Of a DNA stretch of 32,390 bases, positions 921 through 24,694 are shown one piece after another. The notes beneath the pieces are model-generated. The model had not been told where the DNA came from and did not search any database. It saw only the letters and a program-made list of their open reading frames with translations. The position numbers and the translations under genes were made by a program. Position 1 is the first letter of the stretch, and each line of letters begins with the position of its first letter. Origin of the DNA: a virus; IMG/VR virus record IMGVR_UViG_3300042691_031213, positions 1 to 32,390 of that record. One strand, given 5' to 3'.

Positions 921-923
921 TTG

Positions 924-2081
924 ATGAAAAATAAAAAAGGTTTTTGTGTGGCACCATTTAGAAATGCAGAATTCCTTTCAAACGGGGAGGTTTGGCAATG
1001 TGTTTCTGGTGGATGGGATGAAACTCAAAAAAGATGGGTGAACGCTTGGGTTACATGTGGACCTGCGGGAAATGCACTTGCAACGGATTGGAAAGATATA
1101 TGGAATGGTGATACGGCAAAATCTTTAAGAGAATCTATGCATGATGGTAGTATGAGATATTGTGATGAAAACGAATGTGGATTCTTATATAGATGGAATA
1201 GAGAAGAAATAAATGATAGTGTTTATGATAATGGATATTTTCCTATTTTTGATGAAAAAACATTTCACAAACTTTGGAATAATAAAACAATAAACCCAGC
1301 AGGTAAAAAGAAGTTTAAAAAAATAATAGAAGAAAAACTAACAGAATTAGAATGGGGACCAGAATGTGTAATATTTTCACATGATAGAAGTTGTAATTTA
1401 AAATGTCCATCTTGTAGACATGATTTTATACAAACAACAGGTCAAGAAAGATTGATATCAGAAACTATACAAAATAAAATATTAAATTTTGCTCTAACAG
1501 ATGCAAATGAATTATACATAACAGCAAGTGGTGATGGGTTTGGTGGTGAGTTTTGGAGAACATTACTGAAATCTATTACAATGGAAAAATATCCTAATAC
1601 TAGAAATTTACACTTACATACAAATGGAAATGGATGGACTGAAAAAATGTGGAATGGTTTATCTAATTTACATTCTATACCGAGAATCACAGCTGAAATT
1701 AGTATAGATGCATGTTCTAAAGAAACGTATGAACGAATACGAGTTGGTGGTAATTGGAATATACTTTCTAAAAATTTGATATTCATATTTACAAAAATAC
1801 CTAATTTAGATTTTGTTAGATTAACATTTGTTGTTCAAAATAATAATTACAAAGAAATGATTGGGTTCGTTGAAATGGCTGATGCACTACAACGATTAAA
1901 TAATATGAAAACTGAAGTTAATTTTATTCATATAAACAATTGGGGGACATTTACATCCGATGAATTTAAAATTAAAAATATATTAGATTATGAACATCCA
2001 GAAAATAAACTTTTTTTATTAGAAGTTGAAAAATTAAAAAAATTAAATTATAAAAATTTACAAATATTTACAAACTTTTAA
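924..2081 (+). CDS. Radical SAM protein with N-terminal twitch/SPASM-like domain
   Basis: A 385-residue radical SAM enzyme. The [4Fe-4S]-SAM motif CNLKCPSC gives Cys157, Cys161 and Cys164, and a SGDGFGGEF segment (about 202-210) sits where the SAM-binding GGE-type motif is expected. Ahead of the radical core, Cys8-x12-Gly21-x4-Cys26 fits the Cx9-15Gx4C signature of twitch/SPASM auxiliary-cluster domains, with Cys80 and Cys85 as further candidate ligands. The auxiliary domain is therefore N-terminal, unlike typical SPASM enzymes. A TTG codon at 921 could also initiate, but ATG 924 is preferred. The 3' end is extremely AT-rich, more so than the flanking replication genes, which suggests separate acquisition. 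The substrate is unknown; a peptide, or the glycan made downstream, are both possible. Confidence 0.85.
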   Translation: MKNKKGFCVAPFRNAEFLSNGEVWQCVSGGWDETQKRWVNAWVTCGPAGNALATDWKDIWNGDTAKSLRESMHDGSMRYCDENECGFLYRWNREEINDSVYDNGYFPIFDEKTFHKLWNNKTINPAGKKKFKKIIEEKLTELEWGPECVIFSHDRSCNLKCPSCRHDFIQTTGQERLISETIQNKILNFALTDANELYITASGDGFGGEFWRTLLKSITMEKYPNTRNLHLHTNGNGWTEKMWNGLSNLHSIPRITAEISIDACSKETYERIRVGGNWNILSKNLIFIFTKIPNLDFVRLTFVVQNNNYKEMIGFVEMADALQRLNNMKTEVNFIHINNWGTFTSDEFKIKNILDYEHPENKLFLLEVEKLKKLNYKNLQIFTNF

Positions 2082-4146: not shown

Positions 4147-6003
4147 ATGGACATTTCACAAAGAATTTTATCGGACATCACAGTTTATATGAAGTATGCA
4201 AAATATAGACCCGAATTGAATAGAAGAGAAAGTTGGGAAGAATTGGTTACCCGTAATATGGAAATGCATATTAAAAAATATCCAAAATTAGAAACAGAGA
4301 TTAGAGAAAATTACAAATTTGTGTACGATAAAAAGGTTTTACCATCTATGCGTTCAATGCAATTCGCAGGTAAACCAATTGAAATAAGTCCAAATAGAAT
4401 TTACAATTGTGCATTTGCACCTATTGATGATTATAGAGTATTTGCAGAAATTATGTTCTTACTATTGGGTGGAACGGGTGTAGGATATTCAGTACAAAAA
4501 CACCACGTTGACCAATTGCCTGAAATCAGAAAACCAAATGCTGATAAGACAAGACGATTTCTTATTGGTGACTCTATTGAAGGATGGGCAGATGCAATTT
4601 CAGTATTGGTAAAAGCATATTTCTTTGGTGGTAGTAAACCTGTATTTGATTTTAGAGATATTCGTGCAAAAGGTGCAAGACTTGTTACATCCGGTGGTAA
4701 AGCACCCGGTCCACAACCATTAAAAGAGTGTTTGATTAAATTAGAAGGTATTTTAGATGCAAAGCAAGATAGTGATAAATTAACACCAATTGAAGTACAT
4801 GATATGGTTTGTCATATTGCAGATGCAGTTTTAGCAGGTGGTATTCGTAGAGCAGCCCTAATTTGTTTATTCTCTGCAACGGATGAAGATATGATTAGTT
4901 GTAAGAGTGGCGCATGGTGGGAAACAAATCCACAAAGAGGTAGAGCTAATAACTCTGCGGTGTTAATGAGACACAAAATTGATAAAGAGTACTTTATGGA
5001 CTTATGGAAAAGAATTGAAGCAAGTGGAGCTGGTGAACCTGGTATCTATTTATCAAACGATAAAGATTGGGGAACTAATCCTTGTTGTGAGATTGCATTA
5101 AGACCTTTCCAATTCTGTAACTTATGTGAGGTAAATGTTTCAGATGTTGTAGACCAAAACGATTTAAACGAAAGAGTTAAAGCTGCATCATTCATCGGAA
5201 CATTACAGGCGGGTTATACCGATTTCCATTATTTAAGACCAATCTGGCAAAGAACAACTGAAAAGGATGCCTTAATCGGTGTATCTATGACGGGCATTGG
5301 TAGTGGTGCAGTATTGAAGTTGAATATGAAAGAAGCAGCAAAAGTAGTAAAAGTTGAAAATGCAAGAGTAGCAGATGTATTAGGTATCAACCACTCAGCA
5401 AGAACTACAACTGTTAAACCTGCAGGAACTACATCATTGACATTAGGAACATCTTCGGGCATTCACGCGTGGCACAATGATTACTACATTCGTAGAGTAA
5501 GAGTTGGTAAGAATGAATCAATCTATCAATACTTAATGTTAAATCATCCAGAGTTGGTAGAAGATGAATATTTTAGACCACACGATACCGCAGTAATTGG
5601 TATTCCACAAAAAGCACCTGAAACTGCAATCTTTAGAACCGAATCTCCAATTCAATTATTAGAAAGAGTTAAGAGAGTTCATAGTGAGTGGATTAAGCCA
5701 GGGCATAGAAGTGGTAACAATACTCACAATGTATCGGCAACCGTTTCAATCAGGGAGCATGAGTGGAAAGCAGTTGGTGAATGGATGTGGGAAAATAAAG
5801 ATTTCTACAACGGACTTTCAGTATTACCTTACGATGGTGGAACATATATTCAAGCACCATTTGAAGATTGTACAAAAGAAAAGTATGATGAATTAATGCA
5901 AACCCTACATGAGATTGATTTAAGTCAGGTTATTGAAATTGAAGATAACACGGATTTAAGTGGTGAATTAGCTTGTGCAGGAGGTGCGTGTGAAATTAAA
6001 TAA
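4147..6003 (+). CDS. nrdJ: Adenosylcobalamin-dependent ribonucleoside-triphosphate reductase (class II, monomeric type)
   Basis: A 618-residue enzyme that makes dNTPs from rNTPs using a B12-derived radical. It resembles the monomeric Lactobacillus leichmannii RTPR: SMRSMQFAGKPIEISPNRIY (67-86), LLLGGTGVGYSVQKHH (105-120) and NPQRGRANNSAV (261-272). Active-site residues line up: Cys88 (partner of Cys324), the Asn311-Pro-Cys313-Cys-Glu315 cluster with the thiyl-radical cysteine, and Cys324 eleven residues later, the same spacing as Cys408/Cys419 in the Lactobacillus enzyme. The C-terminal CAGGAC motif (Cys610, Cys615) is the swinging redox pair re-reduced by thioredoxin, encoded three genes downstream. 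It is shorter than the roughly 740-residue Lactobacillus enzyme. Activity would depend on host or environmental cobalamin. Confidence 0.95.
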   Translation: MDISQRILSDITVYMKYAKYRPELNRRESWEELVTRNMEMHIKKYPKLETEIRENYKFVYDKKVLPSMRSMQFAGKPIEISPNRIYNCAFAPIDDYRVFAEIMFLLLGGTGVGYSVQKHHVDQLPEIRKPNADKTRRFLIGDSIEGWADAISVLVKAYFFGGSKPVFDFRDIRAKGARLVTSGGKAPGPQPLKECLIKLEGILDAKQDSDKLTPIEVHDMVCHIADAVLAGGIRRAALICLFSATDEDMISCKSGAWWETNPQRGRANNSAVLMRHKIDKEYFMDLWKRIEASGAGEPGIYLSNDKDWGTNPCCEIALRPFQFCNLCEVNVSDVVDQNDLNERVKAASFIGTLQAGYTDFHYLRPIWQRTTEKDALIGVSMTGIGSGAVLKLNMKEAAKVVKVENARVADVLGINHSARTTTVKPAGTTSLTLGTSSGIHAWHNDYYIRRVRVGKNESIYQYLMLNHPELVEDEYFRPHDTAVIGIPQKAPETAIFRTESPIQLLERVKRVHSEWIKPGHRSGNNTHNVSATVSIREHEWKAVGEWMWENKDFYNGLSVLPYDGGTYIQAPFEDCTKEKYDELMQTLHEIDLSQVIEIEDNTDLSGELACAGGACEIK

Positions 6004-6190
6004 AGATAATGAATCATTATATTATTTGGAAAATGGTAAGGTGGTTTTTACCCCTAACTATCATATTGAACGAGGGTATTGTTGTGGCAATGGTTGTCGC
6101 CATTGCCCATATTACCCGAAACATTTAAAGGGGAATAATAAATTAGACCAGTTATGGGAGAAAATCAATCATCAAAACACAAAGAGTTGA
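5990..6190 (+). CDS. DUF5522-like small cysteine-rich protein
   Basis: A 66-residue protein with no in-frame ATG upstream of its conserved part. GTG at 5990 is the likeliest start, with GTG at 5975 or 5984 as alternatives, all inside the 3' end of the reductase gene. The signature RGYCCGNGCRHCPY (28-41) has four cysteines (31, 32, 36, 39) plus a histidine and matches the DUF5522 family, which I associate with Bacteroidota chromosomes. The preceding segment VVFTPNYHIE is also typical. A metal or iron-sulfur site is plausible, but no function is established. The overlap with the reductase gene suggests coupled translation. Its 3' end overlaps the PhoH-like gene by 37 bases. Confidence 0.75.
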   Translation: MKLNKDNESLYYLENGKVVFTPNYHIERGYCCGNGCRHCPYYPKHLKGNNKLDQLWEKINHQNTKS

Positions 6191-7127: not shown

Positions 7128-7159
7128 TTTGTTAAAATGAAAAAAGTTACTTATATTAG
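7128..7159 (+). promoter_or_regulatory. Bacteroidota-type promoter TTTG-N20-TATATTAG (site 1)
   Basis: TTTG at 7128-7131 and TATATTAG at 7152-7159 are separated by exactly 20 bases, with an A-rich spacer. This matches the known Bacteroidota -33/-7 consensus (TTTG / TAnnTTTG) at all but one position of the -7 box. The -7 box ends four bases before ATG 7164, so the transcript should start at or next to the start codon. It would drive the HTH and Mom-like genes. Confidence 0.7.
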
Positions 7160-7163
7160 GGTT

Positions 7164-7364
7164 ATGTTAAAGGGCGAAGCACATCCAATGAGCAAACTTA
7201 CTGAAAAGCAAGTTGAAACGATTAGAGAACTATGGAAAGTTGGACATCGAAATATTAAAGTATTGGCTCAGAATCACAAAGTTTCCCCTGCTAACATTAA
7301 GAAAATAGTTACAAACCAAACCTGGCAGCACATGCTAAAGTGGCCATATGAAAGTAGAAAATAA
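7164..7364 (+). CDS. Small helix-turn-helix DNA-binding protein
   Basis: A 66-residue protein beginning GEAHPMSKLTEKQVETIREL, followed by LAQNHKVSPANIKKIVTNQTW: a HTH fold (about 12-56) of the type often attached to phage homing or HNH endonucleases and to small regulators (GE-HP-KLT-xQV pattern, then a recognition helix). No nuclease domain is present. ATG 7137 is in frame and would add nine residues, but it lies in the spacer of the promoter at 7128-7159, so ATG 7164 is chosen. It overlaps the next gene by 17 bases. It may regulate, or guide to DNA, the modification-type protein encoded behind it; that is inference. Confidence 0.7.
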   Translation: MLKGEAHPMSKLTEKQVETIRELWKVGHRNIKVLAQNHKVSPANIKKIVTNQTWQHMLKWPYESRK

Positions 7365-8151
7365 GTTATATTGTGATGTATCCAGAGTTACAATTAGAGA
7401 AATAAGTCCATCGGTTGCAAAAGAAATTATAGTTAAAAAACACTATACTCACGCGTGGACTGCATGTAGATACTCATTGGGCATATTTTACAGAACAGAT
7501 GAAGTAAACGCATTGGGTGATAATGAAAAACTCATCGGATGTTTGGTTTATGGATTTCCAGTAGGTGCAAGAGCAGCACTTTCAATTTCCGAATTACTTA
7601 CGAAAGATAATGTATTAGAACTTACTCGTCTCTATTGTGATGATGGGTATGGTTCTAACATAGAAAGTTATGCAATCGGACAATCATTTAAATGGTTTAG
7701 AGAAAATGATAAAGCAATAAAGGTCCTAATTTCATACGCAGATAACGGACAAGAACATTTGGGTGGAATATACCAAGCTACTAACTGGATATATCAGGGA
7801 ATGAACACAGAAATTGCTTTAATGCCAAACTATGGTATATCTCTGACAAAAGACCCTTACGATTGGATTCATAGTAGGACAGTGTTTTCAATGTGGGGTA
7901 GTGGTAATTTGGAACATCTTCGTAGAGAAATTGGTAAGCAAGGATATACAGAATTTTGGAGAAGAGAAGAACCACCGAAGCATAGATATGTGCAAGTAAT
8001 TACAGGTGATAAAAAAGAAAAGAAAGCAATATTAAAATCCTTAAAGCATGAAGTTAGAGAATATCCAAAGAATGCAAAGGAATTTAATAAAAGTATAGAA
8101 CATCATTTAACAATCGCACCTGAAACCGAATTAGCAAGTAAGTTTTGGTAG
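7348..8151 (+). CDS. Mom-like GNAT-fold acyltransferase (putative DNA modification protein)
   Basis: A 267-residue protein resembling the phage Mu Mom family, which adds an acyl-derived group to adenine in phage DNA and blocks restriction enzymes. Matching segments are VKKHYTHAW (29-37), LIGCLVYGFPVG (62-73), ELTRLYCDDGYG (91-102) and the hallmark SYADNGQEHLGGIYQATNW (129-147). The C-terminal ~90 residues are basic and may bind DNA. It overlaps the HTH gene by 17 bases and is followed by a DUF4338-like gene with its own promoter. The Mom link is by remembered motif similarity; substrate and chemistry are inferred. A generic N-acetyltransferase is the alternative. Confidence 0.7.
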   Translation: MKVENKLYCDVSRVTIREISPSVAKEIIVKKHYTHAWTACRYSLGIFYRTDEVNALGDNEKLIGCLVYGFPVGARAALSISELLTKDNVLELTRLYCDDGYGSNIESYAIGQSFKWFRENDKAIKVLISYADNGQEHLGGIYQATNWIYQGMNTEIALMPNYGISLTKDPYDWIHSRTVFSMWGSGNLEHLRREIGKQGYTEFWRREEPPKHRYVQVITGDKKEKKAILKSLKHEVREYPKNAKEFNKSIEHHLTIAPETELASKFW

Positions 8152-8175
8152 TATGCGAAAAAATTAGTATATTAG
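8144..8175 (+). promoter_or_regulatory. Bacteroidota-type promoter TTTG-N20-TATATTAG (site 2)
   Basis: TTTG at 8144-8147, inside the last codons of the Mom-like gene, and TATATTAG at 8168-8175 are again exactly 20 bases apart, with an A-rich spacer. The start codon ATG 8179 follows after only three bases, predicting a leaderless transcript for the DUF4338-like gene. Confidence 0.7.
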
Positions 8176-8178
8176 GAT

Positions 8179-9405
8179 ATGAAATTTTGGGACACAGGCG
8201 AAGTAGCCGTAAAAAAAGAAGGTTTTGATTTTGATAAAGAGAAAGCAGCATTGATTGCAAACTTGGATTATCTCTTTGCAATGTCAGTTCAGGAACAAAC
8301 TCTCTACAAAAAGTGGTTAGAGTGGAATGAAGATTTGCATGCAAGTATGAAAACTTTACCTGCATTACATGCTCAATACGATAAGATTTGGAAACCTAAA
8401 GATATAAACGATAAAGCCGGAACTATTGCAGAAATAGAAGGGATGCAACCTTATGTAGAATTGGTTGAGGAAGGTGATGAAGCAACGAAGTGGACTTATA
8501 TGAGAAAATTAATAAGTTCTATGGAGTTCACACCAAACCCAGGTCGAAATGTAAAAGCATTTGTTAAAGATAGAATATCAGGAAAAGTGTTGGGTGTTAT
8601 ATCATTGGGTTCGGATATTACCAGTTTGGGTGTAAGAGATGAATATATTGGTTGGACCAAAGAAGATAAATTTGAAAAAGGTAAATTAAATTGTACAGCA
8701 ATTGGAACTTCTATTATTGCAACACAACCTTTAGGTTATAATTTTTTAGGTGGTAAGTTGGTATCAGCATTAACTACATCACCTACATTTAGAGAGCATT
8801 GGAAACAAAAATATAATAATACCTTAATTGCAGTTGGAACAACTTCTCTTTATGGTATTCATTCACAATACAATGCTATTCCGCATTTTAAAACATTGGG
8901 TGAAAGTAAAGGTAAAATTAGTATAAAACCCGATGATAAATTCTATGACCCGTGGCATCAATGGTTAAAAGAAAATCGTTCAGAATGGTATCAAAATAAT
9001 ATTACAAATGAACGTATTCGTAATGGTGCTAATATGGGATATGAAGCTAACGGACCTGTTAGTGGTATCAAACAAAAAATCCTAACACAAATATTCAGAG
9101 AATGTGGTATCAAAGCAGACCAATATCATCATGGGTTTAAAAGAGGTGTATACTTTGCAATGATGTATGATAACGGATGTGAGTATCTTTGTGATAAGAT
9201 TACGGAAGACCAATTGGTAATGAAAGATAAATTTGTGGAAGGTGATGAATATACAATTCGTTGGTGGAAAAAACAAGCAATCAAACGATATACAAAATTA
9301 CACGAAGAAGGTAGATTAAAAGATGAAACCCTATTTTACGCAGACGCAATCGGATTGACTTGGGAACAAATGAAAGAAAAATTTTTAGCAGACGTAGGAA
9401 GATAA
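8179..9405 (+). CDS. DUF4338 (DruA)-like protein
   Basis: A 408-residue protein. Residues about 105-235 resemble the DUF4338 domain of DruA, a component of Druantia anti-phage systems: VLGVISLGSDITSLGVRDEY (137-156) followed by IGW (157-159), a central segment with LNCTAIGTSIIATQPLGYN (170-188), LGGKLVSAL (190-198) and WKQKYNNTLIAVGTTSLYG (208-226). The C-terminal ~170 residues are basic and aromatic-rich and unassigned. Start ATG 8179 lies three bases after a -7 box. The neighbouring Mom-like gene suggests a shared DNA-directed or counter-defence role. The DUF4338 link is from pattern memory and is moderate; no catalytic residues can be named with confidence. Confidence 0.6.
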   Translation: MKFWDTGEVAVKKEGFDFDKEKAALIANLDYLFAMSVQEQTLYKKWLEWNEDLHASMKTLPALHAQYDKIWKPKDINDKAGTIAEIEGMQPYVELVEEGDEATKWTYMRKLISSMEFTPNPGRNVKAFVKDRISGKVLGVISLGSDITSLGVRDEYIGWTKEDKFEKGKLNCTAIGTSIIATQPLGYNFLGGKLVSALTTSPTFREHWKQKYNNTLIAVGTTSLYGIHSQYNAIPHFKTLGESKGKISIKPDDKFYDPWHQWLKENRSEWYQNNITNERIRNGANMGYEANGPVSGIKQKILTQIFRECGIKADQYHHGFKRGVYFAMMYDNGCEYLCDKITEDQLVMKDKFVEGDEYTIRWWKKQAIKRYTKLHEEGRLKDETLFYADAIGLTWEQMKEKFLADVGR

Positions 9406-9408
9406 AAT

Positions 9409-11964
9409 ATGTATCAGAACATTTATTACGAAAGACAAAAAAACTTAATACATCTTTGGGATGATGAGAGAGGTTATACTACCTTTCCATATCGTAAGTA
9501 TGCTTATAAAAAAGACCCATACGGACAATATCGTTCTATGAATGGTGATAAGTTAAGTAAAATTGGTAAGTGGGAAAAGGATGAAACGGATGAATTATTT
9601 GAAAGTGATGTTCCTGAAACTACAAGAGTATTGGTAGATATTTACGATAGTGATATCCCATCAACCGGCCACCGAATAATGACATTTGACATTGAGGTTG
9701 AAATGATATCAGGTCTACCAAACACAAAAGAAGCTCAAAACGAAATCACAGCAATTGCAGCACATGATAGTGCAACTAAATTGTTTGATGTTTTCGTATT
9801 AGATAAACAAAGAAAAGTTAAAAAAAATGCGGACAAATTTAGCAAAGATGGTAGAGAGGTTAGTGTTCACATTTTCGATAACGAGAAAAATCTCTTACTT
9901 GCTTTCCTTAATTACTACGAAGAAGTTAATGCGTCTATTCTTACGGGATGGAATATAGATTTTTTTGATATTCCATATTTGTATAATCGCATAAAAAATG
10001 TATGTGGTGAAGGACACGCAAAAAGATTATCTCGTATCGGACAATGTTTTTACTCACCATACAGAGACAAATGGAGTTTTGGTGGTGTAGCTATTTTAGA
10101 TTATATCAATTTGTATAAACAATACAACTTTGGTTTGGAAAGTAGTTACACACTAAATCATATTGCAACAAAAGAATTGGGTAGAGGTAAGGTTGAATAT
10201 GAAGGAAGTTTGGATGACCTATTTGAGAATGATTTAGAAAAGTTTATTGAGTATAACATTGTTGACGTTGACTTGGTGGTAACAATGGATAATAAATTAA
10301 AATTTATTGAGTTATGTAGGGCGATATGCCACGCTGGTTACGTTCCATATGAAGATTACATTTATTCTTCAAAATGGTTGGAAGGTGCGTGTTTATCATA
10401 TCTCAAAGCAAAGGGATTGGTAGCTACAAACAAACCAAAAGATAGACAAGAAAGAATGCAAGCACTTCGTGACAACAACGAAGAGAAGTTTATCGGAGCA
10501 TATGTAAAAGAACCTATCGTTGGTAAGTATGATTGGATTTATGATTTGGATTTGACATCTCTATATCCATCAATCATTATGACTCTTAATATTTCACCTG
10601 AAACAAAAATTGGTAAGATTGATAATTGGGATGCGGAAGCATGGATTAAAGGTGAAGATTATGGAACATACCGAATAGTTGGTAAAGATGATACATACGA
10701 ATACAACCGTCAGGAATTAGAAGAAGTAATCAAAGATAGTAATTTGGGTGTAGCAGCAAATGGGGTTCTCTATACGCAAGACAAACCGGGTCTAATCGCA
10801 GATATTCTTAACACATGGTTTCAAAAGAGAGTTGAATATCGTAAGTTGGAAAAGAAATATGGTGAAGAAGGAAACACAGACCAATATGAATTCTATGGTA
10901 AAAGACAACACGTTCAGAAAATCTTATTGAACTCAATGTATGGAGTGTTGGGTTTACCGGCCTTTCGTTTCTATGATGTGGATAATGCAGAAGCAGTAAC
11001 TCTAACCGGACAAGTGGTGATTAAAAAAACCGCTGAAATGGCAAACATAAAGTATTGGAAGGAGTTAGGAACAAAAGAAGATTATAATGTTTATATTGAT
11101 ACGGACTCAATTTATATGATGGCAGAACCTTTGGTAAAACATAGATACCCAGAATATAAAGAGTTTGATGAAAAAAGAATGGCACAGGAAGTAAATACGA
11201 TTGCGGAAGAAACTCAATCATTCTTAAATAAATTCTATGATATATTGGCGGAAAGATTCTTCTTTATTCCAAAAGATAAACACAGATTTGAGATTAAAAA
11301 AGAATATATCAGTAAAGCAGGATTTTGGGTAGCAAAGAAAAGATATGCACAATGGATGATATTGAAAAATGGTATCCCTTGTGATAAATTGGATGTGAAA
11401 GGTTTGGATGTGGTTCGTTCATCATTCCCCAAAGCATTTCAGGAGTTTATGGCAAGAACTCTAAAAGATATCCTAATGGGTAAAGATAATGCATTCATAG
11501 ATGATTCATTACTAACATTCAAAAAAAGTATGGTAGGATTGCCTGTAAATAAAATAGCAAAAGGTGGAGCAATCAAAGAATTGAGTAAATACGATAGTGG
11601 TAATTGGCAAAAGGGTAAAGCAATTGCAGATTTTGAAAAAGGAACACCTGCACACGTTAAAGCCGGAATAGCATATAACCGATTATTAAAATTCTTCAAT
11701 TGCCCATATAAGCACGAACCAATTAGAGACGGTGATAAAGTGAAATGGGTATATCTTAAAACTAACCCGTTGGGATTGGAAGGTTTGGCCTTCAAAGATT
11801 ATAACGACCCAACAGAAATTATAGAATTCATTGAAACATATATTGATAGAGATGAGATTTACAAAGCAGAATTAGAAAATAAGATTGATGATTTCTACAA
11901 CGCTTTGAAATGGGAGAAAGCAACAACAGAAACAAAAACAGCTAAAAAGTTTTTCGCATTTTAA
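9409..11964 (+). CDS. 43: Family B DNA polymerase with 3'-5' exonuclease (T4 gp43-like)
   Basis: The 851-residue replicative polymerase (T4 gp43 is about 900). The proofreading domain shows ExoI MTFDIEVEM (Asp94, Glu96), ExoII TGWNIDFFDIPY (179-190, Asp184) and ExoIII EYNIVDVDLV (281-290, Asp286). Polymerase motif A is DLDLTSLYPSI (379-389, Asp381), motif B KILLNSMYG (504-512) and motif C YIDTDSIY (562-569, Asp565/Asp567), followed by a KKRY motif in AKKRYAQWM. All metal-binding aspartates are present. The protein ends KKFFAF, which looks like a clamp-binding peptide. It starts three bases after the DUF4338-like gene, and an SGNH gene follows two bases after its stop codon. Confidence 0.97.
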   Translation: MYQNIYYERQKNLIHLWDDERGYTTFPYRKYAYKKDPYGQYRSMNGDKLSKIGKWEKDETDELFESDVPETTRVLVDIYDSDIPSTGHRIMTFDIEVEMISGLPNTKEAQNEITAIAAHDSATKLFDVFVLDKQRKVKKNADKFSKDGREVSVHIFDNEKNLLLAFLNYYEEVNASILTGWNIDFFDIPYLYNRIKNVCGEGHAKRLSRIGQCFYSPYRDKWSFGGVAILDYINLYKQYNFGLESSYTLNHIATKELGRGKVEYEGSLDDLFENDLEKFIEYNIVDVDLVVTMDNKLKFIELCRAICHAGYVPYEDYIYSSKWLEGACLSYLKAKGLVATNKPKDRQERMQALRDNNEEKFIGAYVKEPIVGKYDWIYDLDLTSLYPSIIMTLNISPETKIGKIDNWDAEAWIKGEDYGTYRIVGKDDTYEYNRQELEEVIKDSNLGVAANGVLYTQDKPGLIADILNTWFQKRVEYRKLEKKYGEEGNTDQYEFYGKRQHVQKILLNSMYGVLGLPAFRFYDVDNAEAVTLTGQVVIKKTAEMANIKYWKELGTKEDYNVYIDTDSIYMMAEPLVKHRYPEYKEFDEKRMAQEVNTIAEETQSFLNKFYDILAERFFFIPKDKHRFEIKKEYISKAGFWVAKKRYAQWMILKNGIPCDKLDVKGLDVVRSSFPKAFQEFMARTLKDILMGKDNAFIDDSLLTFKKSMVGLPVNKIAKGGAIKELSKYDSGNWQKGKAIADFEKGTPAHVKAGIAYNRLLKFFNCPYKHEPIRDGDKVKWVYLKTNPLGLEGLAFKDYNDPTEIIEFIETYIDRDEIYKAELENKIDDFYNALKWEKATTETKTAKKFFAF

Positions 11965-16113: not shown

Positions 16114-16565
16114 TGGCTGCAAAAAAGTTATTTGACCATTTAAACGCAATAACTGCAGAACAAGACCCAAAGTATTTTGAAAAACTTTCAGAAGAGGATT
16201 TAAAATCATGGAGTAATTTTATGATTAATAGGTTTCTTTCAATGAAACCAGAATGGGTTGAATTGATTGCAACCCTTTTGCCTTTAACACAAACTTTACA
16301 ACCAAAAGAAATGTATAAGTTGTATATTAGTGTAATACCAAAAGGAAAGTATTTTCTCAAATATGTAAAGGGTAAATCTGCAGATAAGTACGAAGATTTT
16401 TTAGTTGATTTAATTAAAACAGATTTTCAATGTTCTGAAAAAGAAGCATTGGAGTATATAGAAGTTCTTTACTCAACACGAGAAGGTAGAGAAAATATAA
16501 AATACATTTGTGAAAAATATGGTACTGATAAAAAACAAATAACTAAATTGAAATTAAAAATTTGA
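16113..16565 (+). CDS. 62: Clamp loader small subunit (T4 gp62-like)
   Basis: A 150-residue protein assigned mainly by position next to the gp44-like ATPase and by gp62-like features: KLFDHLNAI at the start, SWSNFMINRFLSM (32-44), a leucine-rich helix, and MYKLYISVIPKGKYFLKYVK (about 72-91), resembling the conserved 'pK-x-flkyiK' block of T4-like small subunits. The C-terminal ~40 residues form a basic helical tail. In T4 one gp62 joins four gp44 subunits and helps open the clamp. It is shorter than T4 gp62 (187). No ATPase motif is present, as expected. Confidence 0.72.
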   Translation: MAAKKLFDHLNAITAEQDPKYFEKLSEEDLKSWSNFMINRFLSMKPEWVELIATLLPLTQTLQPKEMYKLYISVIPKGKYFLKYVKGKSADKYEDFLVDLIKTDFQCSEKEALEYIEVLYSTREGRENIKYICEKYGTDKKQITKLKLKI

Positions 16566-16592
16566 TAAATACAAAAAATTTAGTTATATTAG
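16561..16592 (+). promoter_or_regulatory. Bacteroidota-type promoter TTTG-N20-TATATTAG (site 3)
   Basis: TTTG (16561-16564, overlapping the end of the gp62-like gene) and TATATTAG (16585-16592) are 20 bases apart. ATG 16597 follows after four bases, again predicting a leaderless message. No other equally good promoter was found between here and the end of the window, so it may drive the nuclease gene and much of the glycan locus. Confidence 0.7.
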
Positions 16593-17506: not shown

Positions 17507-18886
17507 ATGGCAAAAAAGAAGATTCTGTTACTTTCAGATGATTTAAGAATGGCAAGTGGTATTGCCAATGTTTCCAAACAATTAGTATTGGGAACAGTTG
17601 ATAAATACGATTGGGTTCAATTAGGAGCCGCAATCAAACATCCAGAAGCCGGTAAGGTTATGGATTTAAATGAAGATGTTCGTAAGAGAACAGGCGTTGC
17701 AGATGCAAATGTAAAAATTTATCCATTTGATGGTTATGGTAATCCTGATGTCATTAGACAACTACTTATGGTAGAGAAACCTGATGCTATCCTACACTTT
17801 ACTGACCCACGTTATTGGATTTGGTTATATGAAATGGCACATGAGATTCGCCAATCAGTACCCCTTTTCTTTTATCACATTTGGGATGATTTGCCAGACC
17901 CAAAATACAATAGAGATTACTATGAAAGTTGTGATTGGATTGGAACTATTTCAAAACAAACTTATGGTATTACTAAAAGAGTTTGGAGTTGGGATAAAGA
18001 AAAACATTGGACTAAACCCGAAGATTGGCAAGTAAGTTATGTACCACACGGTATTAATTCCGAAGATTATAAACCGATTGATGTTCCTGAAGATTTTAAG
18101 AAAAGTATTTTTGGTGATAAAGATTATGAATTTGTTCTCTATTGGTCAAATAGAAATATTCGCAGAAAACAACCAATTGATGCAATGCTTGCTTTTGAAG
18201 AGTTTAGACAAACATTGAGACCGGAACAAAGAGATAAAGTTTGTATGTTGATGCACACATCGCCGGTTGATGAAAATGGAACGGATTTACCAAAGGTAGC
18301 AGAACATTTGATGCCAGAAGCAAATATTATTTTTGCACCAAATAGATACACAGAAATAGAATTAAACTATCTTTATAATTTAGCAGATGTAACAATTAAT
18401 GTTGCATCAAACGAAGGATTTGGATTGGCAACCGCAGAATCAGTTATGGCTGGTACACCAATCATTGTAAACGTAACTGGTGGATTGCAAGACCAATGTG
18501 GATTTAGAGTTAAAGGAAGTGGAAAATTACTAACTGCTGAAGATTATGTGGAGATTGGTTCATTACATGATAGATACAAAAAGAATACTCATGTTTGGGG
18601 AGATTGGGTAACGCCTATTTGGCCGGTTCGTTCAACAACAGGTTCGGTTCCTACTCCATATATCTTTGATGATAGAATTGATTTTCAGGATGTAGCACCT
18701 TTACTTCGTTATTGGTATGATATGGGTAGAGAAGCTAGAAAAGAAGCAGGACTTAAAGGTAGAAAATGGATGTTAGGAGAAGGAAATTTAAGTAGAGAGT
18801 ATATGTGTCAATCTTTAGTAGAAGGTATGGAAGGCGCATTTGAAAATTGGAAACCTATTAAAAAATATCAATTAGTTACAATATGA
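17507..18886 (+). CDS. Glycosyltransferase, GT4-like (GT-B fold)
   Basis: A 459-residue GT-B glycosyltransferase and the first gene of the glycan locus. The C-terminal donor-binding domain contains NRYTEIELNYLYNLADV (279-295) and the retaining-GT E(x7)E motif EGFGLATAE (Glu303, Glu311), followed by AGTPIIVNVTGG. The N-terminal acceptor domain begins KKILLLSDD. It would transfer a sugar from a nucleotide donor in the cytoplasm; donor and acceptor are unknown. It starts 25 bases after the nuclease gene, with TATATTTT (17488-17495) in the gap but no TTTG at the proper distance, so read-through from the promoter at 16561 is likelier. It overlaps the next GT by ATGA. Confidence 0.88.
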   Translation: MAKKKILLLSDDLRMASGIANVSKQLVLGTVDKYDWVQLGAAIKHPEAGKVMDLNEDVRKRTGVADANVKIYPFDGYGNPDVIRQLLMVEKPDAILHFTDPRYWIWLYEMAHEIRQSVPLFFYHIWDDLPDPKYNRDYYESCDWIGTISKQTYGITKRVWSWDKEKHWTKPEDWQVSYVPHGINSEDYKPIDVPEDFKKSIFGDKDYEFVLYWSNRNIRRKQPIDAMLAFEEFRQTLRPEQRDKVCMLMHTSPVDENGTDLPKVAEHLMPEANIIFAPNRYTEIELNYLYNLADVTINVASNEGFGLATAESVMAGTPIIVNVTGGLQDQCGFRVKGSGKLLTAEDYVEIGSLHDRYKKNTHVWGDWVTPIWPVRSTTGSVPTPYIFDDRIDFQDVAPLLRYWYDMGREARKEAGLKGRKWMLGEGNLSREYMCQSLVEGMEGAFENWKPIKKYQLVTI

Positions 18887-20151
18887 AACCAACATTAGTA
18901 TTTCAAGCACCAATTGCAACAAGAAGTGGATATGGTGACCACGCGAGAGATTTGTTGCATTCATTATATAAGTTAGATAAATTTGATATCAAAGTAATCA
19001 GTACTCGTTGGGGTAATACTCCAATGGATGCTCTAAACTATTCGGATGATTTTCATAAATGGATTATAGAAAATATAATACCATCAATTCAACAAAAGCC
19101 CGATGTTTATATGCAAGTTACTGTTCCAAATGAGTTTCAAGCATTGGGACATTATAATATCGGAATTACAGCTGGTATTGAAACCACAGCATGTGCATTG
19201 GATTGGATACATGGGTGTAATAGAATGGATTTAATTATCACGCCGTCCGAACATGCGAAAGTAAGTTTAGTTGGAACAATCTATAATGAAGCAAATCAAC
19301 AAACCGGTCAATTAATTAAACAACATAAAATACAAAAACCAGTTGAAGTTCTTTTTGAAGGATTCAATGAAAATGATTTCGCAACTAATGAAATTAAACA
19401 TATTTCTGAATTAGATGCCGTTAAAGAAGATTTTGCATTCCTATTCGTAGGCCATTGGTTAAAGGGTGATTTGGGAGAGGATAGAAAGAATGTAGGTATG
19501 ATGATTAAAACATTTGCAATGGCTTTTAAAGATGAAAAAATTAAACCAGCATTGATTCTTAAAACATCATCTGCAACATTTAGTGTATTGGATAGAGAAG
19601 GAATTATATCTAAAATAAAATTTGCATTAGGTAAAGATTATGGAAAAGTTCCTGTATATTTGATACATGGTGATATGAGTGCATCTGAATTAAATGGTTT
19701 GTATGAACACCCAAAGGTAAAAGCAATGTTGAATTTCACAAAGGGTGAAGGATTTGGCAGACCTTTATTAGAATTTAGTTTGACAGGTAAACCTGTAATC
19801 GTTTCTAATTGGAGTGGTCATTTGGATTTCTTAAAAAGTGGAGCGGTATTATTGGATGGTGAATTAAAAGCCGTACATGAATCAGCTGCTGACCAATTCC
19901 TATTAAAAGAATCACAATGGTTTAATGTAAATATTTCTAAAGCATTACAAAGTATTAAAGATGTTTATAAGAATTATGATAAATACAAAGTAGCAGCATT
20001 CCAATTGGGCAAACAAAACAAACAAAACTTTAGTTTAGAAAAAATGACTAAATTGTTTGATAATATTTTAAATCAGTATGGTATTTATAGTAAAGTACAA
20101 CCAAAGTTTCAGCAATTACAATTACCTAAATTAAAAATGTTGAATAAATAA
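18883..20151 (+). CDS. Glycosyltransferase, GT4-like (GT-B fold)
   Basis: A 422-residue second GT-B enzyme, coupled to the first by an ATGA overlap. The retaining E(x7)E motif is EGFGRPLLE (Glu289, Glu297), followed by TGKPVIVSNWSGHLDFL, the usual donor-site segment. The N-terminal domain includes RSGYGDHARDL (14-24), as in GT4 enzymes, and ITAGIETTACALDW (95-108). The two adjacent GT4 genes probably add successive sugars to the same acceptor. The gene ends with a TAATG overlap with the following unknown gene. Confidence 0.88.
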   Translation: MKPTLVFQAPIATRSGYGDHARDLLHSLYKLDKFDIKVISTRWGNTPMDALNYSDDFHKWIIENIIPSIQQKPDVYMQVTVPNEFQALGHYNIGITAGIETTACALDWIHGCNRMDLIITPSEHAKVSLVGTIYNEANQQTGQLIKQHKIQKPVEVLFEGFNENDFATNEIKHISELDAVKEDFAFLFVGHWLKGDLGEDRKNVGMMIKTFAMAFKDEKIKPALILKTSSATFSVLDREGIISKIKFALGKDYGKVPVYLIHGDMSASELNGLYEHPKVKAMLNFTKGEGFGRPLLEFSLTGKPVIVSNWSGHLDFLKSGAVLLDGELKAVHESAADQFLLKESQWFNVNISKALQSIKDVYKNYDKYKVAAFQLGKQNKQNFSLEKMTKLFDNILNQYGIYSKVQPKFQQLQLPKLKMLNK

Positions 20152-20624
20152 TGAGTAATTTTAATCCCATATATCGTAAATTTGTAGATGATAGAAATGT
20201 AATATCCGCTAACAAAATGTCTAGAGGTAAATTCTATCTTATAAAAGAGTATGAGTATGTGGATGGTGAAAAGGGTAGATTTAGTGAAACTACAGCTCCT
20301 ATTGTTTTTACTTTATTCGTTTCAAAAGCAAAAGATATAATACATTGTATAAAAGTATCAAATGTAAATCCAAATCTAATTAAAAGATTCTTTGGAAAAT
20401 TTGTAAATGAAGATACTGAAAGGTTGCAGATGAGAGGAAATGCAAAACAAATATATTCAAAAACTATAAGTAAAATGCCAGCAATTACAGATGATTCATA
20501 TAGAACATATAAAATGAGTGGTTTAAGAAAAGTAATTGAATTAAATATGGATGTAAATCAAATTACACCTAAAAATAAAAACGTAATTGGAATAGATACA
20601 AAATCACAAAAAAGAAACGTATAA
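20151..20624 (+). CDS. Conserved-looking phage protein of unknown function
   Basis: A 157-residue basic protein I cannot place in a family. It contains SRGKFYLIKEYEYVDGEKG (24-42), ending just before RFSETTAPIVFTLFVSKAKD, and a later LIKRFFGKFVNEDTERLQM. It looks like a single compact alpha/beta domain without signal peptide or membrane segment. It has a one-base TAATG overlap with the upstream glycosyltransferase and lies six bases before an SGNH gene. Its codon use looks like the core phage genes rather than the most AT-rich glycan genes. It could be a structural or DNA-associated phage protein sitting within the glycan locus. Confidence 0.7.
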   Translation: MSNFNPIYRKFVDDRNVISANKMSRGKFYLIKEYEYVDGEKGRFSETTAPIVFTLFVSKAKDIIHCIKVSNVNPNLIKRFFGKFVNEDTERLQMRGNAKQIYSKTISKMPAITDDSYRTYKMSGLRKVIELNMDVNQITPKNKNVIGIDTKSQKRNV

Positions 20625-20630
20625 TAAGTT

Positions 20631-21287
20631 ATGAATTCAGTTTGGACTTTTGGAGACTCTATGACAGCTCCGATAGGCGGTGACGGCCCGTATACAGAAT
20701 GGTTAGGAAAATCGGCAAAAACACATTGTAATTTTGTTGCTGAATATTTTGGTTTTACACCGATAAATAAAGGTGTATCAGGATCATCACCAAATCAAAT
20801 ATTTGATGATTTTATGGCAAATCATACAGATATAAAATCAGGAGATATAGTTACATTCGGATGGTCGCCTATAATGCGATATAGAATTGCTCGTAAAAAC
20901 GATCATGGTATGGTTTGGCAACAGTTTTGGGCAACATCCTTTAAGGGTGGTGTAGAAAAAGCATGTGTAGATGGAACTTATATAACAGAAGAAGTTGCAC
21001 AGCACATTATTTTAAACCGATATGAATTTAAATATTTTTATAGTGAAGAAGTAAATAGATGGATATCGTTTATAAAAGAGTGGGCAAAATTAAAAGGAGT
21101 AAAAGTGGTAAATTGGACTTGGTGTGATTCCAATTTTGGTGGAGCTCATAGTATTAATGTTGATATCCCAATTCGTACGAGAACGGATATGTCAATGGAA
21201 ACAAATAATGTCGTAAAAGATGGGCACTATGGTGAAGTTGGGCACAAAGAATTAGCAAAAGAAATTATTGAATTTTTAAATAAATAG
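20631..21287 (+). CDS. SGNH/GDSL-like hydrolase
   Basis: A 218-residue SGNH hydrolase with a classic block I WTFGDSMTAP (4-13, nucleophile Ser10), a glycine-rich block NKGVSGSSPNQIF, a TFGWSPIMRYR segment, and a C-terminal KDGHYGEVGHKEL giving Asp197 and His199 for the triad. It would cleave, or transfer, acyl groups, for example sugar O-acetyl groups, in keeping with the surrounding glycosyltransferases. No signal peptide is seen, so action is cytoplasmic or on virion components. It is the third SGNH-type gene in the window and the only one with the canonical GDS. Confidence 0.82.
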   Translation: MNSVWTFGDSMTAPIGGDGPYTEWLGKSAKTHCNFVAEYFGFTPINKGVSGSSPNQIFDDFMANHTDIKSGDIVTFGWSPIMRYRIARKNDHGMVWQQFWATSFKGGVEKACVDGTYITEEVAQHIILNRYEFKYFYSEEVNRWISFIKEWAKLKGVKVVNWTWCDSNFGGAHSINVDIPIRTRTDMSMETNNVVKDGHYGEVGHKELAKEIIEFLNK

Positions 21288-21289
21288 TT

Positions 21290-21574
21290 ATGACATCAAA
21301 AGAATTTGTTATTTGGTTAAAGGGATTTTCAAAAGCAGCAAACTCATATAATATTACACCAGCACAATGGGATGAAATACAGGAAGAATTAGAAAAAGTT
21401 AGTGATGAATTTAAACCAATGGGTGTAGCAATTGGAAGTGGTGGATTTGGAACGACTACACCTGGATTTGCAGTTACAACTACTCCAGGTTATGGTTCTA
21501 TTTCATATAACCCATCTACATCAACTACATATGATTATCCAAGTGGAAGTGCTTGGCATTATACAAATAGTTAA
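21290..21574 (+). CDS. Small phage protein with Gly/Thr/Tyr-rich tail
   Basis: A 94-residue protein. The N-terminal part, KEFVIWLKGFSKAANSYNIT then PAQWDEIQEELEKV, matches a small helical family frequent in tailed phages whose function is unknown to me. From residue ~48 the sequence turns into low-complexity Gly, Thr, Ser, Tyr and Pro with imperfect repeats (GFGTTTPGFAVTTTPGYG). Such tails are flexible and could be glycosylation targets or adhesive; that is inference. It follows the SGNH gene after two bases and precedes a GT2 gene by one base. Confidence 0.65.
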   Translation: MTSKEFVIWLKGFSKAANSYNITPAQWDEIQEELEKVSDEFKPMGVAIGSGGFGTTTPGFAVTTTPGYGSISYNPSTSTTYDYPSGSAWHYTNS

Positions 21575-21575
21575 T

Positions 21576-22199
21576 ATGAAATTAAGTTACGCAATAACGG
21601 CTTGTAATGAGCATGAAGAAATTATTCGTTTAGTCACACAATTACTAAACTACAAAGGAGAAAATTCAGAAATTGTAGTTCTATTAGATACTCCAAAGGC
21701 ACCAACTGAAATGTTAGAGTATTTAGAATTACAAGCAAATGCTGACCATATTACTCTAATTGAATCTGAATTTGATAATGATTTTGCACAATGGAAAAAT
21801 CTATTAAATTCACAATGTAAAGGTGAGTGGATATTTCAATTAGATGCGGATGAGTATCTTACTCCAGATTTGATTGATAATTTAGAAGATATTTTAGATA
21901 ACAATGGTGATAAAGATATGATAGTTATTCCTCGTATCAATACCGTTGAAGGATTAACACAATCACATATTCAAAAATGGGGATGGAACGTAAATGAAAA
22001 AGGTTGGGTAAATTTTCCAGATGTACAAACACGTATCTACAAAAATTCAGATAAAATAGGATGGAGTGGTAAAGTACATGAAAGAATTGTAGGATTTCAA
22101 AACTATACGGCATTTCCTGCAGAAGAAATATATTGTATTTTACATCCTAAAACAATTGATAGACAAGAAAAACAAAATGATTATTACGAAACTTTATAA
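21576..22199 (+). CDS. Family 2 glycosyltransferase (GT-A fold)
   Basis: A 207-residue GT2 enzyme. It begins KLSYAITACNEHEEIIRLV, the usual nucleotide-binding start, and WIFQLDADEYL (85-95) contains the metal-binding DxD (Asp90, Asp92). GWSGKVHERIVGF near the C-terminus is typical of lipopolysaccharide-core GT2 relatives (WaaE-like). The frame is open further upstream, but ATG 21576 follows the stop codon of the previous gene by one base and gives the proper N-terminus. It ends with a TAATG overlap with the next gene. Confidence 0.85.
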   Translation: MKLSYAITACNEHEEIIRLVTQLLNYKGENSEIVVLLDTPKAPTEMLEYLELQANADHITLIESEFDNDFAQWKNLLNSQCKGEWIFQLDADEYLTPDLIDNLEDILDNNGDKDMIVIPRINTVEGLTQSHIQKWGWNVNEKGWVNFPDVQTRIYKNSDKIGWSGKVHERIVGFQNYTAFPAEEIYCILHPKTIDRQEKQNDYYETL

Positions 22200-22861
22200 T
22201 GGTACATGTTTATTATCACATATACGCAGTTGATGGTGTAGAATCTATAATCGATGAACAAATTGGTTTAATTAAAAAACAATTCGATTTCCCATATAAA
22301 TTAAATATTGGAATTTCTATAGCAAATGAAAATATATCATCTAGAAATATTATAGAAAAAATTTATAACTATAATAATCCGAATTACAAAATAGTTGATA
22401 TTAGATGTAAAGGACATGAATTTGTTACATTGGATTTGATAATGAATGATAGAGAATCATTTTCAGATAACGACTACATTTTATATTTTCACACAAAGGG
22501 TGCATCAAAACAAAAAGAAGCAATATATGAAAATGTGGTATCATGGAGAAAAATGATGCAATACTTTTTAATTGAAAAACATAAAAGTGTTTTTAGAATT
22601 TTTGATAATACAGAATTCAACACATACGGAGTTTTACTAAATCAAATACATAATTTTAAACTACACTATTCTGGTAATTTTTGGTGGTCAAAAGCATCAT
22701 ATATTAAAACAATTGATTTAGACGGAATTAAAGCAAATAGAAGTGCAGCTGAAGTTAATTTTATCCAAAACGGAATAGACTGGAATCCATATTCACCATA
22801 TAATAATGATGTATTAAATAACTATGAGGTAAAGTTTAAAAGAGAAGAATATGCAAAATAA
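22199..22861 (+). CDS. Glycosyltransferase-like protein (YFHTKG / WWSK family), copy A
   Basis: A 220-residue protein that shares two strong blocks with the protein encoded at 29915: YILYFHTKGAS (93-103) and HYSGNFWWSKASYIKT (156-171), plus a Glu in AEVNFI (184-189). The blocks and the glycan setting suggest a small GT-A-like transferase, but I see no clear DxD and call it only glycosyltransferase-like. It is coupled at both ends: TAATG from the GT2 gene and an 11-base overlap with the next. Confidence 0.65.
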   Translation: MVHVYYHIYAVDGVESIIDEQIGLIKKQFDFPYKLNIGISIANENISSRNIIEKIYNYNNPNYKIVDIRCKGHEFVTLDLIMNDRESFSDNDYILYFHTKGASKQKEAIYENVVSWRKMMQYFLIEKHKSVFRIFDNTEFNTYGVLLNQIHNFKLHYSGNFWWSKASYIKTIDLDGIKANRSAAEVNFIQNGIDWNPYSPYNNDVLNNYEVKFKREEYAK

Positions 22862-23738
22862 AATAACATTTATATACGATTATAAAGATGGTGAAGTATG
22901 GTCAACACCAATGTCTTTAATTAATGAATTTAAAAAAAGAAATTGGATTGTCGATATAATCAAAACAAATGATACTGATTTAAAGAATTGGATAGATTCC
23001 AAACCAAAAACGGATATTGTATTGTTTATGGATTGGGGTAGATTTGATTCGCAATATTTAAATAAAGATTTAGTTCCTGCATTTTGGATACAAGAAAGTG
23101 GAGATGACCCGCAAAACTTTGAAAGAAATTACCCAAAAGCAAATAGATTTCATTTAACAATTACACCTGCAGCAAATTCATACGAAGAATATAAAAGTAG
23201 AGGAATAAATACATTGTGGATTACGCATTGGGCAGATACAGCAGTTCAGTTTCCAATGAATGTAGAACCACAATATGTGGGGGTTACAACTAGAGGACCT
23301 GGTGGCTCTCAATTTCTTGATTATCTTACAAATTGGGCAGAAGGAGTAATTGGTAATAGGAATGGAATGGAGGCAAACGAGCATACGGAATTTATTAATA
23401 GTGGTTTGATGGTTATTCAAAATAGTCGTTGGAAAGAAGTGACTCGTAGATTATTTGAAGGAATGGCATGTGGAAAATTAGTAATAACAGACCGTTTACC
23501 CGAAGAAGCAAGATTGAATGAATTATTTATAGAGGGTGAGGAAATCATTTTATATAATGATATGTTTGATTGTATTGAAAAAATAAACTATTACAATGAG
23601 AATGAGCAGGAAAGGGAGAGGATAGCATTTAATGGAATGCAAAAAGTATTAAACAATTATACACAAATTCAAGTAGTAGACAAATTAATAAAAGAACATG
23701 AAAGTTTTAATAACAGGAGTAGCGGGTTTGTTGGGTAG
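22851..23738 (+). CDS. Glycosyltransferase, CgeB-like
   Basis: A 295-residue GT-B-like protein resembling the CgeB/YkvP group. The C-terminal segment has RLFEGMACGKLVITDRLPEE (200-219), the donor-site signature, and an acidic EGEEIILYNDM segment where sugar-nucleotide contacts are expected. The N-terminal domain, beginning ITFIYDYKDGEVWSTP, would hold the acceptor. It is shorter than typical two-domain CgeB proteins. Its 3' end overlaps the epimerase gene by 41 bases, the largest overlap in the window, which suggests tight co-expression. Confidence 0.78.
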   Translation: MQNKITFIYDYKDGEVWSTPMSLINEFKKRNWIVDIIKTNDTDLKNWIDSKPKTDIVLFMDWGRFDSQYLNKDLVPAFWIQESGDDPQNFERNYPKANRFHLTITPAANSYEEYKSRGINTLWITHWADTAVQFPMNVEPQYVGVTTRGPGGSQFLDYLTNWAEGVIGNRNGMEANEHTEFINSGLMVIQNSRWKEVTRRLFEGMACGKLVITDRLPEEARLNELFIEGEEIILYNDMFDCIEKINYYNENEQERERIAFNGMQKVLNNYTQIQVVDKLIKEHESFNNRSSGFVG

Positions 23739-24690
23739 TAGGCTGGCCGATTGGATAATAGAAAACCATCCGGAAGTTGAAGTAGTGGGGATAGATGATT
23801 TAAGTGGAGGCTACAGAGAAAATGTAAATTCAAAAGTCAATTTTTGGCAAATGAATTTGGTTGAACATCCAATTGAAAATTGTTTTCAAAATCATAAATT
23901 TGATTATGTATTTCATTTTGCAGCATACGCAGCAGAAGGATTATCACCATTTATTAGACAATATAATTACGAAAATAATTTGGTAGCAACTGCAAGAATT
24001 ATTAACGAATGTATAAAGCACGATGTTAAAAGATTGGTTTTTACATCAACACTTGCCGTATATGGACATGGTAATTATGGTATCTTTGATGAAGAACAAA
24101 CTCCGAAACCAATAGACCCATACGGAGTAGCAAAATATGCATGTGAAATGGATATACAAATAGCTGGAGAACAGCATGGGTTAGATTGGTGTATTATTCG
24201 TCCACACAATGTTTATGGCATTAAACAAAACATCTGGGATAAATACAGAAATGTATTAGGTATTTGGATGTATCAATATATGAATGGCGAACCAATGACT
24301 ATATTTGGTGATGGTGAACAAAAAAGAGCATTTAGTTATATTGATGATATATTAGAACCACTATGGAATGCGGCCGTGAAACCAGAAGCATCAAAAGAAA
24401 TAATTAATTTGGGTGGTGTTGAGGAATGGACAATTAACAATGCTAATAAAGTTTTAATGGAAGTTATTACAAACGGAGAAGTTGTTTATAAAGAAGGTAG
24501 ACATGAAGTAAAAAATTCAATACCAACGCATCAAAAATCGGTAGATATAATTGGTTTTAAACATAAAACTACATTAAAAGAAGGATTGACAAAAATGTGG
24601 AATTGGGCACAAAAGCAACCACAAAGAAATAGATTTCATTGGGAAAAATATGAAATAGATAAAGGCATTTATTCATTTTGGAAAAAATAA
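23698..24690 (+). CDS. NAD-dependent sugar epimerase/dehydratase (extended SDR)
   Basis: A 330-residue extended short-chain dehydrogenase acting on NDP-sugars, close in pattern to UDP-glucose 4-epimerase. The NAD-binding motif is TGVAGLLGS (6-14, Gly7, Gly10, Gly13) and the catalytic residues are Ser117/Thr118 in FTSTLAVYG and Tyr142-x3-Lys146 in PYGVAKYACE. The FGDGEQKRAFSYIDD block binds the sugar nucleotide. It would supply an epimerised donor to the transferases around it. It starts inside the end of the CgeB-like gene. Confidence 0.9.
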   Translation: MKVLITGVAGLLGSRLADWIIENHPEVEVVGIDDLSGGYRENVNSKVNFWQMNLVEHPIENCFQNHKFDYVFHFAAYAAEGLSPFIRQYNYENNLVATARIINECIKHDVKRLVFTSTLAVYGHGNYGIFDEEQTPKPIDPYGVAKYACEMDIQIAGEQHGLDWCIIRPHNVYGIKQNIWDKYRNVLGIWMYQYMNGEPMTIFGDGEQKRAFSYIDDILEPLWNAAVKPEASKEIINLGGVEEWTINNANKVLMEVITNGEVVYKEGRHEVKNSIPTHQKSVDIIGFKHKTTLKEGLTKMWNWAQKQPQRNRFHWEKYEIDKGIYSFWKK

Positions 24691-24694
24691 AAAT

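What the first reader, a model, noticed from the sequence alone, without database searches (positions are those of the whole stretch)
7128..9405. HTH / Mom-like / DUF4338-like trio with matching promoters
A small HTH protein overlaps a Mom-like acyltransferase gene, and a DUF4338 (DruA)-like gene follows. The two transcription units carry the same TTTG-N20-TATATTAG promoter with near-zero leaders. Mom modifies adenine to evade restriction; DUF4338 is known from Druantia defence. A phage set combining both could be a new DNA modification or counter-defence module.
Basis: partly seen in the sequence, partly recalled or inferred. Interest (0 to 1): 0.72.

Follow-up and report, generated by a model that had tools for sequence, protein, structure and literature searches.

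The report
Phage DNA-acylation operon beside DNA polymerase
An uncultured T4-like virus of bacteria, and many of its relatives, carry next to their DNA polymerase gene a small DNA-binding protein and two distantly related acyl-transfer enzymes: one very likely disguises viral DNA chemically from restriction enzymes, and the other links an unexplained bacterial defence protein (DruA) to the same enzyme group.

Summary
The window is a fragment of a T4-like phage. Orf 7348-8151 is a true Mom: Pfam Mom E 1e-41, matches the Mu Mom crystal 8BV8 (E 2e-33; fold Z 21.4), catalytic serine kept (S107; 151/152 relatives). Orf 8179-9405 is a DUF4338/DruA-like protein (PF14236 1e-17). The promoter TTTG-N20-TATATTAG is real (3 copies, 0.025 expected) and conserved upstream of the HTH gene in 52/58 distinct relatives; it moves the HTH start to 7164 (66 aa, 4-nt leader). 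The set is kept by purifying selection: 51 of 58 sequence-independent Mom groups also carry DUF4338, in the replication operon. Relatives often have two Moms; three groups place a short DUF4338 in the slot right after HTH. That short form links the families: its profile matches Mom (E 5e-7; 11 unrelated or reversed profiles at most 2% probability) and DUF4338 (2e-15). The DruA model has a GNAT fold whose best (tied) match is Mom. So this is a replication-linked DNA-acylation module with two related acyltransferase families, not a Druantia system. Mom identity is firm; DruA acting on DNA is plausible, unproven. Relatives also carry nuclease-like or methyltransferase genes between the two.

The parts
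7128..7159 (+). promoter TTTG-N20-TATATTAG driving HTH-Mom; 4 nt before the HTH start
   Evidence: exact motif, 0.025 expected in the window; conserved in 52/58 distinct relatives
7164..7364 (+). small HTH protein, 66 aa (start revised from 7137); leader gene of the operon, overlaps the Mom start
   Evidence: dN/dS 0.03-0.14 against nine relatives
7348..8151 (+). Mom-type DNA adenine acyltransferase (GNAT fold), 267 aa; S107 = catalytic S124 of Mu Mom
   Evidence: PF25680 1.2e-41; 8BV8 1.9e-33; fold Z 21.4 over 189 aa; S107 in 151/152 relatives
8144..8175 (+). second promoter TTTG-N20-TATATTAG, overlapping the Mom stop, 3 nt before DruA
8179..9405 (+). DUF4338/DruA-like protein, 408 aa; predicted GNAT core at about residues 85-354
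   Evidence: PF14236 1.1e-17; model pLDDT 84.6; best VIA row 8BV8 Mom Z 10.1 over 181 aa; PADLOC DruA 4e-18
9409..11964 (+). family B DNA polymerase directly downstream; places the module in the replication operon

Best explanation
A DNA-modification operon built into the replication gene cluster of a lineage of T4-like phages. Mom transfers a small acyl group (methylcarbamoyl in Mu) from an activated donor to N6 of adenine in newly made phage DNA, so host restriction enzymes no longer cut it. The DUF4338/DruA-like protein is a second GNAT-fold acyltransferase, remotely homologous to Mom, that most likely also acts on phage DNA, at another site or base or on Mom's product, made together with the DNA polymerase from its own copy of the same promoter. 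The small HTH protein, translated first and overlapping Mom as Com does in Mu, most likely binds DNA to control the operon or to guide the enzymes. Shown: identities, folds, active-site conservation, promoters, purifying selection, conserved linkage, profile link Mom - short DUF4338 - DruA. Inferred: the modification itself, DruA's substrate, the role of HTH.
For: Mom: Pfam 1e-41; 8BV8 2e-33; Z 21.4; all 16 motif residues checked, including the serine aligned with S124, kept in at least 150 of 152 proteins. DruA-like: PF14236; GNAT core, with Mom the top, though tied, row and the longest alignment (181 aa vs 131-160 for the others, Z 10.1 vs up to 9.8); a phage Mom is the best viral fold hit outside DUF4338 (rank 6, E 0.011). 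Bridge: the short DUF4338 matches DruA (E 2e-15, prob 98.5) and Mom (E 5e-7, prob 92.4) over whole domains, while nine unrelated families and two reversed profiles give at most 2.2%; its HMM hits only Mom proteins among bacterial loci. Linkage: Mom with (s)DruA in 51/58 groups; HTH is followed by Mom in 45 groups and by the short DUF4338 in 3; 14/15 long contigs carry both. In distant phages DUF4338 sits by clamp and clamp-loader genes. dN/dS 0.03-0.24.
Against: No virion DNA has been analysed. Long DruA against Mom by sequence alone is not significant (E 0.008, prob 5%), and DruA lacks Mom's ELxRL / NxES / SxAD motifs, so its chemistry may differ. GNATs also acylate proteins and small molecules. 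No DUF4338 lies within about 5 kb of Mom in the 69 bacterial loci, so the pairing is confined to this phage lineage and could be shared ancestry. DruA evolves faster than Mom or PolB.
Confidence: 0.62

Rival explanations
1. Only Mom modifies DNA. The DruA-like GNAT acylates a protein, for example a replisome part or a host factor, and sits there because it serves replication.
For: Most GNAT matches of the model are small-molecule or protein acetyltransferases with Z within 1 of Mom; in cyanophages and marine relatives DUF4338 lies between clamp and clamp-loader genes, in the cyanophage without Mom nearby; Mom's catalytic motif is absent from DruA.
Against: The short DUF4338 sits in the Mom operon straight after HTH and matches Mom by profile.
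Confidence: 0.23
2. A phage-borne restriction-modification arrangement: Mom (and DruA) mark phage DNA as self, and the variable nuclease-like proteins encoded next to Mom destroy unmodified host or rival phage DNA.
For: In 48 of 158 loci a gene of at least eight unrelated families follows Mom, several with ParB-like or HNH parts or a DNA methyltransferase, and a GmrSD_N-HNH gene follows DruA in others. Mom fused to a nuclease was proposed as such a system in jumbo phages (PMC7824862).
Against: The window itself has no such gene between Mom and DruA; most relatives lack it; at least one insert is a GIY-YIG homing endonuclease, so the site may be a landing place for homing genes.
Confidence: 0.2
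3. The genes are neighbours by inheritance only: separate functions that ended up in one replication operon of one phage lineage.
For: DruA has its own promoter and in another clade lies after the clamp gene, about 3 kb or more from Mom; no pairing in bacterial loci.
Against: Repeated reshuffling keeps both genes (51/58 groups), and short DUF4338 replaces or joins Mom in the same slot.
Confidence: 0.2

Closest known systems
Phage Mu Mom (methylcarbamoylase, PDB 8BV8; Pfam PF25680; phrog_1384)
   Same: Full-length sequence and fold match, catalytic serine, short gene overlapping the mom start upstream (Com in Mu, own knowledge)
   Different: About 24% identity; extra C-terminal stretch; upstream protein is an HTH, not the zinc-finger Com (Com: PMC6483171); often tandem Mom copies in relatives; in a T4-like replication operon under TTTG/TATATTAG promoters
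DruA of Druantia type I / Pfam PF14236 (DUF4338); phrog_19197
   Same: Passes the PF14236 cut-off and matches the PADLOC DruA models over the GNAT core
   Different: Phage replication-operon gene, no Druantia partners seen; phage-specific long and short subfamilies. DruA-like proteins in cyanophages were noted by Phold (PMC12774648); DUF4338 was called a GNAT in PMC10853773
Mom-nuclease fusions of jumbo phages (PMC7824862)
   Same: Mom placed with nucleases in large phages, proposed modification plus restriction
   Different: Here separate, variable neighbouring genes, absent from the window itself
Polaribacter phage P12002L Mom
   Same: Closest Mom in an isolate, 43% identity; a DNA methylase gene lies just upstream
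   Different: 48.7-kb phage, no DUF4338 found in the 10.6-kb stretch read, no T4-like replication operon

Membership tests
Mom (PF25680) | profile score above curated cut-off | tested here: met
   143.1 vs 27.1 bits
Mom (PF25680) | GNAT fold like the Mu Mom crystal | tested here: met
   Z 21.4, 189 aa, next best 12.1
Mom (PF25680) | catalytic serine (S124 in Mu, mutated to A in 8BV8) | tested here: met
   S107 aligned to the mutated A; 151/152 Ser
Mom (PF25680) | acylated adenine in DNA | not testable with these tools
   needs mass spectrometry
DUF4338 / DruA (PF14236) | profile score above curated cut-off | tested here: met
   64.5 vs 27 bits
DUF4338 / DruA (PF14236) | GNAT fold of the core | tested here: met
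   model 85-354 matches GNATs, Z 8.6-10.1; DUF4338 described as GNAT
Druantia defence system | partner genes, in particular the large DruE helicase | tested here: not met
   no ORF over 851 aa in the window and no such family among the window ORFs scanned; the rest of the genome was not available
DruA as a member of the Mom family | Mom motifs ELxRL, NxES, SxAD | tested here: not met
   absent from the DruA alignment
DruA as a distant homologue of Mom | significant profile or fold similarity | tested here: inconclusive
   direct profile match not significant; bridge through short DUF4338 significant; fold match tied with other GNATs
Mu-type com-mom pair | zinc-finger RNA-binding Com overlapping mom | tested here: not met
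   overlapping 66-aa protein resembles HTH proteins; its sequence holds no cysteine

The most novel reading that the evidence does not exclude
DUF4338 proteins, DruA of Druantia included, are Mom-related DNA-base acyltransferases; these phages use two or three such enzymes to install a compound DNA hypermodification during replication, and bacteria have turned one branch into a defence component.
Probability: 0.33. Interest if true: 0.78.

Novelty: new variant of a known kind. Interest (0 to 1): 0.56.

Why it matters
DruA has no established biochemical activity in the papers found here. A phage operon in which a short DUF4338 takes its place beside Mom under the same HTH leader, and matches Mom by profile, gives a direct, testable proposal: DUF4338 enzymes acylate DNA. 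It also suggests that a widespread uncultured T4-like lineage carries chemically modified DNA, which would affect restriction, sequencing and cloning of these phages.

Tried and rejected
Direct profile comparison of long DruA and Mom: not significant (the compare tool itself failed). Mom/DruA pairing in bacterial genomes: a scan for short DUF4338 found none and no DUF4338 lies near Mom in 69 bacterial loci. Solved-structure sequence search with the DruA profile: only chance-level hits. Druantia reading: no partner genes in the window. HTH as remnant of a homing endonuclease: weak similarity to endonuclease-linked HTH domains, but it is a conserved free-standing gene with dN/dS down to 0.03, so rejected. 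DUF5522 as host clue: found in none of the 14 control genomes. Host: the promoter resembles the Bacteroidota -33 TTTG / -7 TAnnTTTG type (own knowledge), but the nearest polymerase among isolates is from Microcystis phage Mel-JY01 (49.5%), so the host is left open. One search was a script error, repeated.

Full report
Setting. The window is a 32.4-kb viral record with T4-like replication genes: DnaB-like helicase, ribonucleotide reductase, PhoH, thioredoxin, then HTH, Mom, DUF4338, family B DNA polymerase, a clamp-like protein, dUTPase, clamp loader.

Observation. All three genes and both promoters exist as described. The exact motif TTTG-N20-TATATTAG occurs three times (7128, 8144, 16561) against 0.025 expected. 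Across distinct relatives a slightly looser form (spacer 19-21, TAnnTTnG) precedes HTH in 52/58, DruA in 23/71, the clamp gene in 37/65, and Mom, PolB, PhoH, RNR in none. Because the -7 box lies inside the first codons of the 75-aa ORF, the HTH start is the ATG at 7164, giving a 4-nt leader.

Mom. Pfam Mom 1e-41 and phrog_1384 4e-44. The family profile finds one solved structure, Mu Mom 8BV8 (S124A), at 2e-33. The predicted model (pLDDT 84.6) matches 8BV8 at Z 21.4; the next structure has Z 12.1. Numbering the alignment puts mutated residue 124 on S107, which is Ser in 151 of 152 unique family members; the other 15 motif positions checked are as constant.

DruA-like. PF14236 1e-17, PADLOC DruA 4e-18, phrog_19197 7e-30. 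The model (pLDDT 84.6) has a GNAT core at about 85-354; among re-aligned PDB chains Mom ranks first (Z 10.1, 181 aa), tied within 1 with other GNATs that align over 131-160 aa. Foldseek alone gave no PDB match below E 0.001. Viral fold hits are phage and giant-virus homologues and, at rank 6 (E 0.011), a phage Mom. Its alignment keeps Q183-x-x-G186-x-N188, close to the CoA-loop motif of GNATs (inference), but not the Mom motifs.

Bridge. A short DUF4338 (about 240-250 aa; PF14236 7e-23) lies between HTH and Mom in some relatives. With 21 unique members its profile matches long DruA (prob 98.5, E 2e-15) and Mom (prob 92.4, E 5e-7, 184 columns). Nine unrelated families and two reversed profiles give at most 2.2% probability. 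Its HMM, run on ORFs of 69 bacterial Mom loci, hits only ORFs at the Mom positions (E about 1e-3). PHROGs gives the same two families. So Mom and DUF4338 are connected through the short form, although long DruA and Mom do not match directly.

Conservation. After merging overlapping identical loci, 107 groups remain: 58 with Mom, 51 of these also with DUF4338, 42 with two or more Moms, 18 with the short DUF4338, 40 with the glycosyltransferase-like gene. The order is Trx-HTH-(sDruA)-(Mom2)-Mom1-(insert)-DruA-(GT)-PolB, or HTH-Mom2-Mom1-(GT)-PolB-clamp-DruA-clamp loader. Fifteen long contigs (65-365 kb) hold one to three Moms; 14 hold one to three DUF4338. dN/dS against nine relatives is 0.03-0.14 for HTH, 0.03-0.15 for Mom, 0.08-0.24 for DruA.

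Inserts. In 48 of 158 overlapping loci another gene lies directly after Mom: ParB-like proteins, HNH- or GIY-YIG-bearing proteins, an N6/N4 DNA methyltransferase, and families without match; a GmrSD_N-HNH protein lies after DruA in others. They may be restriction partners or homing genes; I cannot tell.

Literature. In the open library DUF4338 appears in three papers, one calling it a GNAT; DruA-like cyanophage proteins were seen by structure search; Mom-nuclease fusions are known in jumbo phages. A DUF4338 gene of phage S-SCSM2R is annotated 'methylcarbamoylase mom', so the resemblance has been met by an annotator. I found no paper on the operon or on DruA acting on DNA; subscription journals were not searched.

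Verdict. The Mom half is a new member of a known kind. The operon with HTH leader, tandem and short forms, and the DUF4338-Mom link is a new variant. That DruA acts on DNA is a good hypothesis and not a result.

Noticed in passing
window 17507-31819: Sugar/glycan gene cluster in the phage: two GT4-type glycosyltransferases, an NAD epimerase, a uridine-kinase/aldolase fusion, a HAD/nucleotidyltransferase fusion and a C-methyltransferase.
   Followed up: partly
window 921-2081: SPASM-domain radical SAM-like protein next to the 5'-3' exonuclease gene.
   Followed up: no
window 16561-16592: Third copy of the same promoter, 4 nt before a PD-(D/E)XK nuclease gene.
   Followed up: partly
L004:2786-3424, L066:2178-2990: Additional, more distant Mom genes outside the module in relatives, near the helicase gene and upstream of ribonucleotide reductase.
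   Followed up: partly
L171 (365-kb contig, G012): A jumbo-sized viral contig with three Mom and three DUF4338 genes.
   Followed up: no
BFVD A0A3G4ZXG3, A0A5K0UAJ3, A0A3G4ZRA1: Predicted proteins of giant viruses (Faunusvirus, Yasminevirus, Dasosvirus) match the DUF4338 model (E 8e-17 to 4e-9).
   Followed up: no
L053:10234-11793 and six similar loci: GmrSD_N plus HNH protein, like a type IV restriction enzyme, encoded by the phage just after DruA.
   Followed up: partly
window 5975-6190: DUF5522 protein overlapping the end of the ribonucleotide reductase gene.
   Followed up: partly
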